Below are positions 33,881 to 38,092 of a DNA stretch of 39,081 nt, piece after piece. The translations under genes and the position numbers were made by a program. The notes under the pieces are model-generated. The model was not told the origin of the DNA, searched no databases, and worked only from the letters and a program-made list of their open reading frames with translations. Source of the DNA: Rhodocyclaceae bacterium (GTDB taxonomy: Bacteria > Pseudomonadota > Gammaproteobacteria > Burkholderiales > Rhodocyclaceae). The first letter of the stretch is position 1. Every line of letters begins with the position of its first letter. The stretch lies in the NCBI GenBank assembly GCA_028687645.1, contig JAQTZQ010000011.1:1-39081 (forward strand). The letters run 5' to 3'.

Positions 33881-33908
33881 GGCATGGCCGGCTTGGCAGG
33901 CGTTTGAC
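33881..33908 (+). repeat. Short dispersed repeat, copy 1
   Basis: The 16 bases GGCATGGCCGGCTTGG are identical to 34771-34786, and after five differing bases the match resumes with GTTTGAC. The two copies lie 890 bases apart on either side of the repeat-protein gene. Nature unknown. Confidence 0.5.
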
Positions 33909-34022
33909 GTGCTCTGTGGCTGGCTCAAGCCGGGACAAAATCAGCGTAAGTCTTGCGGTCAACCTTAAAAATGCCATCAAAAACGCTGTCGACCGTAATT
34001 GTTGGCGACAACTGGCCCCGCT

Positions 34023-34058
34023 TTTACATTTACTTACATCGCCTTAACAGCGCTTAAA
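34023..34058 (+). promoter_or_regulatory. Array of CpxR-like half-sites upstream of the repeat-protein gene
   Basis: Half-sites TTTAC (34023), CTTAC (34033), TTAAC (34044) and TTAAA (34054) start 10, 11 and 10 bases apart. On the minus strand they read GTAAA, GTAAG, GTTAA and TTTAA. The nearest is 70 bases before the ATG at 34129. The same 10-11-10 spacing occurs at 36220-36255. They resemble the established CpxR box GTAAA-N5-GTAAA. Confidence 0.55.
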
Positions 34059-34128
34059 CCATTAGCTGGATAAATTACTTTGGCCAACAAAGCTTGGCAT
34101 CATCTAACGAAATGAAAGGAATTTTGAC

Positions 34129-34644
34129 ATGCGCGGCGGACTAAAAAGCAAACTCCCAGGCACAAAGAGCCAAACCCCGTGGGCAACCACGCAAAGCGAA
34201 GCGGTTCAAAGCGACGGCAGTGTTGATGTTACTTTGACCTCAACCAATGGCAATGCAACTTTGAGCCGTGTGGTTTCATTGGCTGAAAACACGACCGATG
34301 GCAGTTTTTCCATCACTAGCACCCATCACAATCGCGAAACAGTACAAACCATTGCAGCCGATGTTGATGGCGGTGTCGATGTGACATTTACGACGACATC
34401 CACCAGCGGCGTCGAAATGTCACGCACCATTGACCTTGATCTCAATGCAGCCGGTGAACTGATCCTTACCAGCAGTTTTACCGGTGCCAGCGGCAACGCC
34501 GCCACCCACACCCACACGCTGGATCTGGCGACATTCCTGGGTTCCGAGGGCGAAGCCTTGACCGTTGCCGAGGTGGCAGAAGCCTATCTCGAAATGCAAG
34601 GCGTCGATATCACTTTGACGGGCATTGCCGATTTGTTGGCATAG
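34129..34644 (+). CDS. Unrecognised Thr/Ser-rich protein with two internal repeats
   Basis: 171 residues, not matched to a family I know. After a basic N-terminus (about 1-12, no signal peptide visible) come two related units of about 50 residues: one from DGSVDVTLTST (29-77) and one from DGGVDVTFTTT (80-132). Both alternate Thr/Ser with Val/Ile/Leu in a beta-strand pattern and end in a strand followed by D-L or T-I. The last 35 residues are acidic and helical (VAEVAEAYLEMQGVD). AAAGGA precedes ATG 34129. The gene ends before a strong terminator and is single. The CpxR-like array upstream suggests control by the two-component system at 36323-38092. A surface or envelope role is possible but not shown. 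Confidence 0.75.
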   Translation: MRGGLKSKLPGTKSQTPWATTQSEAVQSDGSVDVTLTSTNGNATLSRVVSLAENTTDGSFSITSTHHNRETVQTIAADVDGGVDVTFTTTSTSGVEMSRTIDLDLNAAGELILTSSFTGASGNAATHTHTLDLATFLGSEGEALTVAEVAEAYLEMQGVDITLTGIADLLA

Positions 34645-34701
34645 AACCAGCCCGGCGGTTGGGGAAGCGCTCTGCAAGCAGTGGCGACTTTCTCCAAAAA
34701 C

Positions 34702-34731
34702 AAAAAAGCTCCTTGGCAGGGGCTTTTTTTT
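34702..34731. terminator. Bidirectional Rho-independent terminator between repeat-protein and EF-hand genes
   Basis: AAAAAAGCTCC (34702-34712) pairs with GGGGCTTTTTT (34719-34729) with one G-T pair and a TTGGCA loop. The plus strand continues in T to 34731. The minus strand also ends in a T run followed by GTTTTTGG, so it can stop both the repeat-protein gene (plus) and the EF-hand gene (minus). Confidence 0.85.
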
Positions 34732-34761
34732 ATCCCTACTTGATTGATCGCCAGAAATCAT

Positions 34762-34788
34762 CACCAAGCCGGCATGGCCGGCTTGGTG
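34762..34788. repeat. 12-base perfect inverted repeat past the EF-hand gene
   Basis: CACCAAGCCGGC (34762-34773) and GCCGGCTTGGTG (34777-34788) are perfect reverse complements around ATG. It lies 15 bases beyond the EF-hand stop on the minus strand and may act as an RNA-stabilising stem or weak terminator; no T run follows. The right arm includes copy 2 of the short dispersed repeat. Confidence 0.65.
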
Positions 34789-34798
34789 TGGGTTTGAC
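34771..34798 (+). repeat. Short dispersed repeat, copy 2
   Basis: Identical over 16 bases to 33881-33896, with GTTTGAC shared again at the same offset. Here the copy forms part of the 12-base inverted repeat; in copy 1 the left arm is not complementary, so copy 1 cannot form the same long stem. Confidence 0.5.
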
Positions 34799-34802
34799 AG
34801 AA

Positions 34803-35477
34803 TCAGGCGCTGACTGAAAGCAGGCTCGAAACGGCGTTTCCGGACTGATCCGGTGGTGTGTAGGCTTGCATCAGTTGCATGATTTTCATCATGATTTTGG
34901 CCTCGCCGGTATCGCTTGCGCTCGCGCTGGCGGTGCTGCTGCTATCCGTTGCGCTGCTCTCTGATGAACTGCTGGACTTTGAGGACTGGTCATAGACCAT
35001 GGCCTCGGTAAAGCTGACTTTGCCATCGCTGTTGGTATCGGCGGCCTCAAAGTTGTTGACGATGTTGCTGATGGTACTGCCGCGCTTGCTGTCGCTGCTG
35101 CCAATGGCTTCCAACTGGCTGTTCAGTTCATCCTGGGTGAAACCGGCATCATCAGCCGGTGGCGGGGGAGGGCCGCCGGCACCTTGTGGGCCTCCGCCAC
35201 CACCACCGTGCATGCGCATCTGGTTGAACTGGCTGTCCAGTTGCTCCTGCAATTTGGCGAGGGTGCTGGAAAACTCGCTCTCAGTAACCTGGCCGTTACT
35301 GTCGCTATCGAGGGCGCTGAAAATATCGTCAACGCTGGTGCTGTCGCTGCTACTGCTCGACAATTTGCTGAAGGCTGAAACGAAATCGCTTTTTTCCAGA
35401 AAGCCCTGGCTTTTGGTATCGAGCGCAGAAAATAGTTTGCTGCTGAGTTGTGAGGTATTGCCGATGCCGCTGATCAT
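34803..35477 (-). CDS. EF-hand calcium-binding protein (XopAW-like)
   Basis: 224-residue acidic, Ser-rich protein without a recognisable signal peptide. Two canonical EF-hand loops: residues 57-68 (DSDSNGQVTESE) and 147-158 (DTNSDGKVSFTE); a third at 20-31 (DTKSQGFLEKSD) lacks some Ca ligands. Between them lies a Gly- and Pro-rich hinge (about 91-108, GGGGGG then PPPPP) and near 165-190 a Ser-rich stretch. The arrangement resembles a group named after the Xanthomonas protein XopAW, but no secretion system is in this window, so an effector role should not be assumed. It is transcribed away from box 35579-35603 and ends near a bidirectional terminator. Calcium buffering or sensing is inferred from the loops. 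Confidence 0.85.
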   Translation of the reverse strand: MISGIGNTSQLSSKLFSALDTKSQGFLEKSDFVSAFSKLSSSSSDSTSVDDIFSALDSDSNGQVTESEFSSTLAKLQEQLDSQFNQMRMHGGGGGGPQGAGGPPPPPADDAGFTQDELNSQLEAIGSSDSKRGSTISNIVNNFEAADTNSDGKVSFTEAMVYDQSSKSSSSSESSATDSSSTASASASDTGEAKIMMKIMQLMQAYTPPDQSGNAVSSLLSVSA

Positions 35478-35578
35478 GATGGACTCCTTGATTCGGGTTG
35501 AATAATTGCCGGTTTTTCCGGGCTGTGTTCTATGAGCAAAGTATCGGCCCGAAACGAGCTTGATTGATGGCGGTTGGT

Positions 35579-35603
35579 GTTAAGCGGGGTAAAAGTTTGT
35601 TAA
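35579..35603 (+). promoter_or_regulatory. Array of CpxR-like half-sites upstream of the EF-hand gene
   Basis: GTTAA (35579-35583), GTAAA (35589-35593) and GTTAA (35599-35603) are spaced exactly 10 bases apart on the plus strand. The array lies about 100 bases upstream of the leftward EF-hand start, so relative to that gene it reads TTAAC-TTTAC-TTAAC, as at the other two arrays. Confidence 0.55.
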
Positions 35604-35610
35604 GGAAACG

Positions 35611-35648
35611 AGCCCTGCCTGTGCCAATAGCGGGGTATCGGCAGGGCT
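35611..35648. terminator. Hairpin past the Spy-like gene, possible terminator
   Basis: AGCCCTGCC (35611-35619) and GGCAGGGCT (35640-35648) form a 9-base stem with a 20-base loop. The plus strand continues TTTT, but the gene that ends here (Spy-like) is on the minus strand, where only CGTTTCC follows. It may end the Spy-like message weakly or block transcription coming from the left. Confidence 0.5.
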
Positions 35649-35658
35649 TTTTAGCGTT

Positions 35659-36150
35659 TTAAAGCATGGCACCCGGTTGGGCGGCAATTTTTGCCGTGAT
35701 TTGCTGGCGCTGTTCCGGGGTTAGCAGGGCGACGATTTTTTGCTCGCTCTGGGCGCGCATTAACGCCATTTCGGCCTGGGCGTCGGCGGCGTTGCGCGCC
35801 AGTGATTTGGCGCGTGCCTCGTCGTAGCGATCTGCCAGGGAAAGCTGGCGTAATTCATCCATGGCTTGACGGCTGGCTTTGGCCTTGTCGCGCATGAGTG
35901 GAGCCTGTTTGTGCCGGATTTCAAAAATCTGGTCTTTTTGGGCTTCGCTCAGCTTGAGGCCGCGCAGGAAGGGCGGCATGCCGTCCCGTTCGCCACCATG
36001 GCGACCGGCGCGGTGACCGAAGCCGTGACCGTCGTCGGTGCGGTGATGACCCATTTTGGCCAGACACGACTGGTCGACCGCAGCAAGTGGTTGGGCGTGA
36101 GCAAGAAACGGGGTAACGAGGATCAGAGCGGCAAATAGTTTGGTTTTCAT
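35659..36150 (-). CDS. Spy/CpxP-family periplasmic protein with His-rich segment
   Basis: 163-residue secreted protein. Signal peptide about 1-19 (cleavage after LAHA). A His/Gly-rich segment follows at about 34-57 (MGHHRTDDGHGFGHRAGRHGG), a possible metal site as in ZraP-type relatives. The helical body carries the two LTxxQ-like motifs of this family: LSEAQ near 67 and LTPEQ near 143. Spy and CpxP are periplasmic chaperone and stress-sensor proteins; CpxP inhibits its cognate kinase. It is divergent from the CpxR/CpxA-like pair, with the 36220-36255 array between them, the usual layout of cpxP and cpxRA. Confidence 0.88.
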   Translation of the reverse strand: MKTKLFAALILVTPFLAHAQPLAAVDQSCLAKMGHHRTDDGHGFGHRAGRHGGERDGMPPFLRGLKLSEAQKDQIFEIRHKQAPLMRDKAKASRQAMDELRQLSLADRYDEARAKSLARNAADAQAEMALMRAQSEQKIVALLTPEQRQQITAKIAAQPGAML

Positions 36151-36219
36151 GATTTTTCCTGGTGGGGTTTCGCGTGACCGGAGTGGTGCGGCGATGGCTG
36201 CATTGTTGGTCAGCCTGAC

Positions 36220-36255
36220 GTTAAGAGGCGTTAGCGAGCGGTAAAAGTCTGTAAA
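36220..36255 (+). promoter_or_regulatory. Array of CpxR-like half-sites between the Spy-like gene and the response regulator
   Basis: GTTAA (36220), GTTAG (36230), GTAAA (36241) and GTAAA (36251) start 10, 11 and 10 bases apart. The last two form a perfect GTAAA-N5-GTAAA, the known CpxR consensus. A TATCAT (36284-36289) may be the -10 for the rightward operon. The array is 69 bases upstream of the Spy-like start and about 70 upstream of the regulator start, so it may control both. Confidence 0.65.
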
Positions 36256-36322
36256 AACAGTGTCTGATCGTAACGGGCTTGGCTATCATCGGGGCCATGA
36301 AAATTGACGGATGGATGGCGTG

Positions 36323-37006
36323 ATGACGGCGGTGCTGCTGGTCGACGATGATGTGGAGTTGGCGGAAATGCTAGGCGATTACCTTGTCCAGGAGGGCTTT
36401 GTCGTGACCTCCGTGCATGACGGCGCGAGTGGCGTTGAAGCGGCGCTGAGCGGCAACTACGCGATTGCCGTGCTCGATGTGATGATGCCCAAACTCTCCG
36501 GGATCGAGGCGCTGCGCCAGATCAGGGCCGCGAGTTCGATGCCGGTGCTGATGTTGACGGCGCGTGGTGATGACATGGATCGTATCGTCGGGCTCGAACT
36601 TGGGGCCGATGACTATGTGCCCAAGCCCTGTTTGCCACGCGAGTTGGCCGCCCGCTTGCGCGCCATTTTGCGTCGTAGCGGGCAATCTGGCGAAGCGGCC
36701 AATGCGCCGCTGGTGTTTGGCGCTTTGTGCGTGCGCCCTGAACAACGGCGGGTCGAGTGGGCTGGGCTAGCGGTTGATCTGACCAGTACCGAGTATGCGC
36801 TGGTTGAAATGCTGGCTCGCCATGCCGGGCGTCCAGTCAGCAAGGAAGATTTGTCCGGACAGGCCTTGGGGCGGCCGCTGGCGCGCTTTGACCGGAGTAT
36901 TGATGTGCATCTCTCCAGCATTCGCCACAAACTGGGGCCGCTGGCCGATGGCCGCTCGTGCATCCAGACGGTGTATCGGCAGGGCTATCAGTTGATTCGG
37001 GAATAG
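36323..37006 (+). CDS. OmpR/PhoB-family response regulator, CpxR-like
   Basis: 227-residue regulator with a receiver domain (acidic cluster D8-D10, phosphoacceptor D52 in VLDVMMPK, T79, K101 in VPKP) and a C-terminal winged helix (SSIRHKLG recognition helix, VYRQGYQL wing). ATG 36323 gives the usual family start (MTAVLLVDDD), and GGATGG lies just before it; an in-frame ATG at 36311 would add four residues. It is followed four bases after its stop by the histidine kinase gene. The Spy-like gene upstream and the GTAAA-N5-GTAAA array suggest it is the CpxR of this organism or a close functional analogue. Confidence 0.88.
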   Translation: MTAVLLVDDDVELAEMLGDYLVQEGFVVTSVHDGASGVEAALSGNYAIAVLDVMMPKLSGIEALRQIRAASSMPVLMLTARGDDMDRIVGLELGADDYVPKPCLPRELAARLRAILRRSGQSGEAANAPLVFGALCVRPEQRRVEWAGLAVDLTSTEYALVEMLARHAGRPVSKEDLSGQALGRPLARFDRSIDVHLSSIRHKLGPLADGRSCIQTVYRQGYQLIRE

Positions 37007-37009
37007 GCC

Positions 37010-38092
37010 ATGGGGCGGCTATTCTGGAAGTTTTTCTTTTTTATATGGCTGGCGCAACTGGCGGGTGTGCTGGGTACCGGCATTGTTTTTTGGCTGGATC
37101 GCCAGGCGCTAGAGCAGCGTTTTGAGTCGCGTCCGCCACCGGGTTTTCGACCACCAGCGGCGTATGGTGTGCTGCCGCCACCCCCTCCCCGGGGCGGTCT
37201 TCACCAGCCGCCACTGCCGAGGATTGCGGGGGGATTGCTCGCCAGTTTGCTCTGTGCGGCTGGCCTCGCCTGGTATGTTGCCAAGCCGATTCGCCAGTTG
37301 CGCGGGGCTTTCGAGGCGGCGGCGGAGGGCAATCTTGAGGTAAAAATCGGTGAGCGCATGGGTAAACGCAGGGATGAATTGGCTGATCTGGGGCACGATT
37401 TTGATCGCATGACTGAGCATTTGCGTGCCCTGATGGACGGCCAGCGCCGCCTGCTGCACGATGTCTCGCACGAGTTGCGCTCGCCGCTGGCGCGCTTGCA
37501 GGCAGCGATTGGTTTGGCTCGCCAGCAACCGGCGCGCCTGGAGGATAGCTTGCAACGTATCGAGCGCGAAGGCGAACGGATGAATCGGCTGGTGGGTGAA
37601 TTACTCACCCTGTCACGGCTGGAGGCTGGTGTCGAGGTGCCTCTGGAAGGCGTCGACGTGGGGGAATTGCTCGCCGATCTGGTCGCCGATGCCCGCTTTG
37701 AAGCGGCGGGCAAGCAGGTTACGGTCAACTGCCAAAACAGCCCGAATTTTATCGTCCGGGCGAATGGTGAATTGCTGCATCGGGCAATTGAAAACGTTGT
37801 GCGCAATGCCCTGCGCTATTCGCCGCTCGGCGGGGTGGTGGACATCAAGCTGAGTCGACGGGATGCCGCGCGCTGCCAGATCGAGATTGTTGACCAAGGG
37901 CCGGGCGTCCCGGGCAGCGAGCTGGAAAGTATTTTTGCCCCATTCTTTCGAGTCGTCGGCCAAGGCGATGGTTATGGTTTGGGGCTGGCTATCGCGCGCC
38001 GTGTGCTGGCCGCTATAGACGGCACAATTCATGCCGAAAACGGCGTTGACCGTGGGCTGCGGGTGGTGCTGGAACTACCGCTGGTGGTGTGA
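37010..38092 (+). CDS. Membrane sensor histidine kinase, CpxA-like
   Basis: 360-residue kinase. Two membrane helices (about 7-29 and 71-91) enclose a short periplasmic loop of about 40 residues rich in proline (RPPPGFRPP, PPPPP), much shorter than that of E. coli CpxA. A HAMP linker (about 90-143) precedes HisKA with H154 (SHELRSPLARL) and an HATPase domain (N-box IENVVRNALRY, DQGPGVP, GYGLGLAIA). It is the last gene of the regulator operon. The small Pro-rich sensor loop suggests the stimulus is sensed through a partner such as the Spy-like protein; this is inference. Confidence 0.88.
   Translation: MGRLFWKFFFFIWLAQLAGVLGTGIVFWLDRQALEQRFESRPPPGFRPPAAYGVLPPPPPRGGLHQPPLPRIAGGLLASLLCAAGLAWYVAKPIRQLRGAFEAAAEGNLEVKIGERMGKRRDELADLGHDFDRMTEHLRALMDGQRRLLHDVSHELRSPLARLQAAIGLARQQPARLEDSLQRIEREGERMNRLVGELLTLSRLEAGVEVPLEGVDVGELLADLVADARFEAAGKQVTVNCQNSPNFIVRANGELLHRAIENVVRNALRYSPLGGVVDIKLSRRDAARCQIEIVDQGPGVPGSELESIFAPFFRVVGQGDGYGLGLAIARRVLAAIDGTIHAENGVDRGLRVVLELPLVV

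What the first reader, a model, noticed from the sequence alone, without database searches (positions are those of the whole stretch)
34023..36255. Three arrays of GTAAA/GTTAA half-sites with shared 10-11 base spacing define a candidate local CpxR-like regulon
Seen directly: half-site starts at 36220/36230/36241/36251, at 35579/35589/35599 and at 34023/34033/34044/34054. The first and third share the same 10-11-10 spacing, and all three have the same orientation relative to the leftward Spy-like, leftward EF-hand and rightward repeat-protein genes. One pair is a perfect GTAAA-N5-GTAAA, the established CpxR box. That three of the four intergenic regions in about 2.2 kb carry them, next to a CpxRA-like pair, suggests one regulator controls the EF-hand and the unknown repeat protein as well as the Spy-like gene. 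Longer arrays (3-4 half-sites) than the usual pair are unusual.
Basis: partly seen in the sequence, partly recalled or inferred. Interest (0 to 1): 0.75.

Follow-up and report, generated by a model that had tools for sequence, protein, structure and literature searches.

The report
Conserved CpxR-type arrays control EF-hand gene
Rows of a short repeated DNA word sit in front of three genes beside a CpxR-like stress regulator, and the row in front of a calcium-binding (EF-hand) protein gene is kept in most of the related loci examined, from four orders of Betaproteobacteria, so a stress-response switch probably controls a calcium-binding protein there.

Summary
In detail: all eleven half-sites are at the stated coordinates, though the last one of the 34 kb array is poor. 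The arrays are not chance. The triple 10-10 array lies upstream of the EF-hand gene, antisense to it, in 69 of 79 homologous loci; sense 0, reversed sequence 0. The 10-11-10 four-site array gives 21 hits in 60 genomes against 1 control hit; 18 of 21 precede Spy/CpxP-like genes. The 34023 array has the same class and geometry, but no homologue of its gene (34129) was found, so its conservation is untestable. A GTAAA-N5-GTAAA pair precedes the regulator gene in 20 of 25 orthologous loci, suggesting autoregulation. The neighbouring regulator (43% identical to E. coli CpxR) is the likely binder: arrays track its presence, with exceptions. Spy and autoregulation are the known Cpx layout; an EF-hand gene as conserved Cpx-type target was not seen in the literature searched. 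In this genome alone neither the plain pair (5 hits, 7 control) nor the one-mismatch triple (2 hits, 3 control) is in excess; the case rests on location and conservation. No binding or expression data.

The parts
36220..36255 (+). four half-sites GTTAA-N5-GTTAG-N6-GTAAA-N5-GTAAA between the divergent Spy-like and regulator genes
   Evidence: same class in 21 hits over 60 genomes, 18 of 21 upstream of Spy-like genes
36241..36255 (+). GTAAA-N5-GTAAA pair, 70 bp before the regulator start; probable autoregulatory site
   Evidence: pair 66-107 bp before the (extrapolated) regulator start in 20 of 25 loci with an orthologue
36202..36207 (-). -10-like hexamer AACAAT, 13-18 nt after the Spy array; array reaches the -35 position
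   Evidence: same offset holds AACAAT, GAGTAT, GATCAT and similar in relatives
35659..36150 (-). Spy/CpxP-like LTXXQ protein, 163 aa
   Evidence: Pfam LTXXQ 41.6 bits, cut-off 24.3; NCBIfam Spy 62 bits, below cut-off 174
35579..35603 (+). three half-sites GTTAA-N5-GTAAA-N5-GTTAA upstream of the EF-hand gene
   Evidence: 69 of 79 homologous loci; 19 of 19 EF-hand orthologue loci in genomes with the regulator orthologue, a diverged paralogue in G025 excepted
35541..35548 (-). conserved core-promoter-like element GCCGATAC, 31-38 nt after the array
   Evidence: GATA starts 34 nt after 45 of the arrays in the 79 loci
34803..35477 (-). EF-hand protein, 224 aa, two canonical and two degenerate loops, no signal peptide seen by eye
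   Evidence: Pfam EF-hand families above cut-off; alignment A1
34023..34058 (-). four half-sites GTAAA, GTAAG, GTTAA and a weak TTTAA, 10-11-10, upstream of 34129
   Evidence: (one mismatch)
34071..34076 (+). -10-like TAAATT at the same 13-18 nt offset as in the Spy class
34129..34644 (+). orphan protein, 171 aa, beta-rich in a low-confidence model
   Evidence: no Pfam family; no homologue among the other genomes searched
36311..37006 (+). CpxR-like response regulator, the proposed binder
   Evidence: 43% identical to E. coli K-12 CpxR; NCBIfam CpxR 202 bits, below cut-off 341
37010..38092 (+). CpxA-like sensor kinase with a short proline-rich periplasmic loop

Best explanation
These are promoter operator arrays of a CpxR-type two-component system. 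Under envelope stress the kinase (37010) phosphorylates the regulator (36311), which binds tandem half-sites as side-by-side dimers. At the Spy-like gene, and probably at 34129, it sits on a four-site array (two dimers, 10-11-10) that reaches the -35 position and recruits RNA polymerase. At the EF-hand gene it sits on a three-site array about 30 nt upstream of a conserved core element (GCCGATAn). At its own gene it uses the GTAAA-N5-GTAAA pair (autoregulation). Shown here: arrays, positions, conservation, promoter geometry, co-occurrence with the regulator. Inferred: identity of the binder, phosphorylation, activation rather than repression, the stress signal, and the role of the EF-hand protein (probably calcium buffering or calcium-linked protein handling as part of the envelope-stress output).
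For: Triple array antisense to the EF-hand gene in 69 of 79 loci (57 exact, 61 distinct 25-mers), sense 0, reversed 0, and 7 elsewhere in 534,718 bases on both strands; loci include Rhodocyclales, Burkholderiales, Nitrosomonadales and Neisseriales. 19 of 19 EF-hand orthologue loci in genomes with the regulator orthologue. Four-site arrays: 21 hits v 1 control, 18 of 21 before Spy-like genes, also where Spy faces the other way (G019, G020, G023). Regulator pair in 20 of 25 loci. Genus-level co-occurrence: arrays by the patterns in 17 of 22 genomes with the regulator, 2 of 14 without (Fisher 0.0004, relatedness ignored). Of 22 array-bearing loci with no regulator within reach, 10 genomes were tested and all 10 hold an orthologue elsewhere. 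Recognition-helix region FDRSIDVHLSSIRHKL against CpxR FDRAIDMHISNLRRKL. The GTCAA variant in the arrays of four genomes (G006, G008, G010, G030) matches an in-vitro P. aeruginosa CpxR motif (PMC12802237, passages).
Against: G014 and G026 keep a Spy array but lack a close regulator orthologue. Of 10 array-less EF-hand loci 5 genomes were tested: 3 lack the orthologue, but L183 and L177 have it. In L150, L166 and L186, with 63-68% regulators nearby, only arrays with three mismatches are seen. In the window's genome alone there is no excess of the pair or of the one-mismatch triple. A diverged EF-hand paralogue in G025 and the G049 homologue have no array. Three of 21 four-site arrays do not precede Spy. 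No binding, footprint or expression data. The co-occurrence test ignores relatedness.
Confidence: 0.8

Rival explanations
1. Another OmpR/PhoB-family regulator of the genome, not the neighbouring 36311 regulator, binds the arrays (or shares them with it).
For: G014 and G026 have a Spy array but no close orthologue; the genomes hold many related regulators.
Against: Arrays co-occur with the orthologue in the genus and in the ten distant genomes tested; the orthologue's own gene carries the pair in 20 of 25 loci.
Confidence: 0.13
2. The arrays repress rather than activate, as some CpxR sites do in E. coli (recalled).
For: The four-site array reaches the -35 position.
Against: PhoB-type activators sit at the same place (recalled); P. 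aeruginosa CpxR activates cpxP, muxA and mexA (PMC5063474, passages); the EF-hand array lies upstream of the core element.
Confidence: 0.15
3. The EF-hand core promoter is a sigma-28 (flagellar) promoter (consensus recalled), so the array joins stress and flagellar control.
For: GCCGATA-like letters at a fixed distance after the array in most loci, with TMAA-like letters best at a 15-nt spacer.
Against: Genome-wide TMAA-N15-GCCGATA gives 13 hits, control 5; two are in the window's own region, and behind the other 11 I recognised no flagellar or chemotaxis gene by eye, without a family search. The -35 letters are poorly kept. TAnnTT in the same element would fit sigma-70.
Confidence: 0.08
4. 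The 34023 array is a leftover or chance array and does not control the orphan 34129.
For: No homologue to test; last half-site weak; 4 of 1000 shuffles give a triple array there; direct repeats flank the segment.
Against: Four-site matrix: 0 of 2000 shuffles; start codon 71 nt from the array and -10-like hexamer at the same offset as in Spy promoters.
Confidence: 0.3

Closest known systems
CpxRA-CpxP envelope stress system (E. coli, Pseudomonas aeruginosa)
   Same: CpxR-like regulator and CpxA-like kinase, divergent LTXXQ gene, GTAAA-N5-GTAAA box, likely autoregulation. PMC12802237 (passages) says Cpx systems occur throughout alpha-, beta- and gamma-Proteobacteria and that the majority of cpx loci in representative genomes have cpxP divergent from cpxAR.
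   Different: Three- and four-half-site arrays (the same pair scan of E. coli K-12 shows one perfect pair at cpxP-cpxR and a one-mismatch pair near spy); an EF-hand gene as conserved target; kinase shorter than CpxA (360 v 457 aa) with a proline-rich loop.
P. aeruginosa muxA and yceJ promoters
   Same: Two listed CpxR sites 11 bp apart, which I read as three tandem half-sites (PMC12802237 passages).
   Different: Different targets; 11-bp rather than 10-bp spacing; not described as an array in the passages seen.
CaBP-SigV circuit of Caulobacter (PMC13171946, abstract only)
   Same: An EF-hand protein tied to stress regulation.
   Different: Sigma factor SigV, not a two-component system; CaBP is periplasmic with a Sec signal.

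Membership tests
CpxR (NCBIfam NF008199) | model score at or above the curated cut-off | tested here: not met
   202 bits, cut-off 341; highest-scoring of the 25 families shown of 91
CpxR | receiver plus winged-helix output domains | tested here: met
   Pfam Response_reg and Trans_reg_C
CpxR | GTAAA-N5-GTAAA box at own locus | tested here: met
   36241-36255 and 20 of 25 orthologous loci
CpxR | binds the box when phosphorylated | not testable with these tools
   needs protein
CpxA (NCBIfam NF007007) | model score at or above cut-off | tested here: not met
   216 bits, cut-off 486; alignment to E. coli CpxA starts at residue 92, the HAMP region
CpxP/Spy LTXXQ family | Pfam LTXXQ above cut-off | tested here: met
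   41.6 bits, cut-off 24.3; NCBIfam Spy and CpxP cut-offs not met
EF-hand proteins | Pfam EF-hand above cut-off with canonical loops | tested here: met
   EF-hand_7 49.9 bits, cut-off 30; loops at residues 57-68 and 147-158
XopAW (NCBIfam NF041410) | model score at or above cut-off | tested here: not met
   43 bits, cut-off 120; only residues 8-75 match

The most novel reading that the evidence does not exclude
In Betaproteobacteria a CpxR-type system has a calcium-binding EF-hand protein as an ancient core output, kept with its own operator array even where the CpxP/Spy partner is absent from the locus. The window's kinase is short of the CpxA-type sensor region, and the EF-hand protein (with the Spy-like protein) may feed back calcium or envelope state, making a calcium-linked envelope-stress circuit.
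Probability: 0.2. Interest if true: 0.75.

Novelty: new variant of a known kind. Interest (0 to 1): 0.52.

Why it matters
It names a conserved, testable target gene for a Cpx-type stress system in Betaproteobacteria and links envelope stress to a calcium-binding protein of unknown role. The array classes (three sites for EF-hand, four for Spy, two for the regulator) would let this part of the regulon be read from sequence in related genomes.

Tried and rejected
Sigma-28 core promoter for the EF-hand gene: suggested by GCCGATA, but no flagellar gene was recognised behind the genome-wide hits, so not adopted. Plain CpxR pair as a genome-wide finder: no excess over control. The own-genome triple array in contig C103 (GTAAACGGAT repeated) is taken as a simple tandem repeat with no known target; at one mismatch the own-genome triple pattern gives 2 hits against 3 control hits, so one genome alone would not prove the arrays. 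Homologues of 34129: none in the 59 other genomes, none in the other 398 of 399 genomes sampled from the order (the two sets overlap), none in viral contigs or plasmids; weak matches only to a PHROGs tail protein, E 0.005, and to an NCBIfam phosphatase model, 17 of 330 bits; single-sequence fold poor, pLDDT 50. The EF-hand model is also modest, pLDDT 60, so no fold search was made.

Literature: CpxR with EF-hand gives 2 papers with one or two mentions of each term (listing only); Dechloromonas with two-component and CpxR gives none. The listings show no paper on this link. Passages were read in PMC5063474, PMC12802237 and PMC8041468 (the last has no mention of CpxR in its main text), and the abstract of PMC13171946.

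Full report
What is there. The half-sites were read directly at the stated coordinates. On the coding strand of each gene the arrays read TTTAC-N5-TTTAC-N6-CTAAC-N5-TTAAC (Spy-like gene), TTAAC-N5-TTTAC-N5-TTAAC (EF-hand gene) and TTTAC-N5-CTTAC-N6-TTAAC-N5-TTAAA (34129). The weak member is the last half-site of the 34129 array. Neighbours: LTXXQ (Spy/CpxP-like) protein, EF-hand protein, CpxR-like regulator and CpxA-like kinase; 34129 matches no Pfam family.

Is it chance? In dinucleotide shuffles of the three intergenic regions a triple array with at most one mismatch arises in 4, 1 and 0 of 1000; the window holds no other such array on either strand and its reversed sequence has none. A four-site matrix from 14 of the 19 non-window arrays ranks 36220 and 34023 first and second of 78,092 positions. 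In this genome alone the plain pair (5 v 7 control) and the one-mismatch triple (2 v 3 control) carry no excess, so the case rests on location and conservation.

Conservation, EF-hand class. The exact triple pattern has 16 hits in 60 genomes (window's genome included) against 3 for the reversed pattern; 14 of the 16 lie before the EF-hand gene, one near the regulator of G039 before a small Ser-rich gene, and one is an unrelated tandem repeat. With one mismatch allowed, all 19 EF-hand orthologue loci in genomes with a regulator orthologue have it (14 exact, 5 with one mismatch), including G010 where the gene lies 4 kb from the regulator; a diverged paralogue in G025 and the homologue in G049 do not. 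A scan of public genomes with the EF-hand alignment found 83 relatives, of which the best 80 were kept (79 distinct loci, L117-L195); this is a capped list found through two peptide patterns, and it overlaps the previous set. Of these 79, 69 carry the array antisense to the gene within 419 bp, 57 exactly, with 61 distinct 25-mers; sense strand 0, reversed sequence 0; elsewhere in the same loci 7 in 534,718 bases on both strands. Column conservation is partly built in, because arrays were chosen at one mismatch or less. The ten without are four Undibacterium, three Uliginosibacterium, L166, L177 and L180. Array-bearing members come from Rhodocyclales, Burkholderiales, Nitrosomonadales and Neisseriales; L142 and L154 bear titles of other groups (metagenome bins).

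Conservation, Spy class. The 10-11-10 pattern with one mismatch gives 21 hits in 19 of 60 genomes, control 1. Eighteen of 21 stand before a Spy-like gene, with the start 56-86 nt away. In G019, G020 and G023 the Spy gene faces the other way relative to the regulator and the array has turned with it. The three others precede a short ORF beside the kinase of G058, an unclear ORF in G027, and 34129 of the window. In G058 and G054 further arrays stand before efflux-type operons (outer-membrane factor, MacAB-like; names by eye).

Regulator class. A GTAAA-N5-GTAAA pair lies 66-107 bp before the extrapolated regulator start in 20 of 25 loci with an orthologue of at least 66% identity (G006 is a partial copy); the five without are G019, G020, G023 (Spy upstream in the same direction), G059 and G006.

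Promoter geometry. In the Spy class a -10-like hexamer stands 13-18 nt after the array (AACAAT in the window; GAGTAT, GATCAT and similar in relatives), so the last half-site takes about the -35 place. 34129 has TAAATT at the same offset and its start codon at 71 nt, as Spy has at 70. In the EF-hand class GATA of the element GCCGATAn starts 34 nt after 45 of the arrays in the 79 loci. A sigma-28 reading of that element was tested in part and not supported.

Who binds? The neighbouring regulator is 43% identical to E. coli CpxR with a similar recognition-helix region but falls below the NCBIfam CpxR cut-off, so it is called CpxR-like. In the genus, pattern-matched arrays occur in 17 of 22 genomes with the orthologue and 2 of 14 without. 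Of 22 array-bearing loci with no regulator in reach, 10 genomes were searched and all 10 hold an orthologue elsewhere; of the 10 array-less loci, 5 genomes were searched, three lack it and two have it. G014 and G026 keep a Spy array without a close orthologue and remain unexplained.

What is known. The pair, the divergent cpxP and direct activation by CpxR are established (PMC5063474 and PMC12802237, passages read). Paired sites 11 bp apart before muxA and yceJ are listed in PMC12802237, so longer arrays have precedent. The searches named in Tried and rejected show no paper linking CpxR with an EF-hand target.

Verdict. The arrays are real and conserved and behave as operator arrays should. 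The Spy and autoregulatory parts are ordinary Cpx biology; the EF-hand target and the array classes are the new part; control of 34129 is likely but unproven.

Noticed in passing
33881-33909 and 34771-34799: Near-identical direct repeats (first 16 bases identical) flank the orphan gene 34129 and its array; the 16-base word has no other copy in the window within two mismatches. L169, the closest of the 79 loci by regulator identity, has no 34129 homologue. It may be an inserted segment.
   Followed up: partly
37010-38092: The kinase is about 96 aa shorter than E. coli CpxA before the HAMP region; its periplasmic loop is a short proline-rich stretch. By uncurated ORF starts, most orthologous loci give 355-394 aa, but G033 (412), G030 (445) and G011 (466) are longer, and G038, G054 and G059 are 442-480.
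   Followed up: partly
L087 3522-3998 (coordinates of the locus turned to the regulator's strand): In G039 a small Ser-rich protein without EF-hand match stands behind the triple array, in the place of the EF-hand protein.
   Followed up: no
L086 3663 and L094 4329 (turned as): Arrays upstream of efflux-type operons (outer-membrane factor, MacAB-like, by eye) beside the regulator.
   Followed up: no
L101 and L114: Genomes G026 and G014 keep the Spy four-site array but lack a close regulator orthologue.
   Followed up: partly
35612-35647: A hairpin (GCCCTGCC ... GGCAGGGC) between the Spy-like and EF-hand genes, seen by eye; it was not among the terminator-like sites.
   Followed up: no
   Followed up: no
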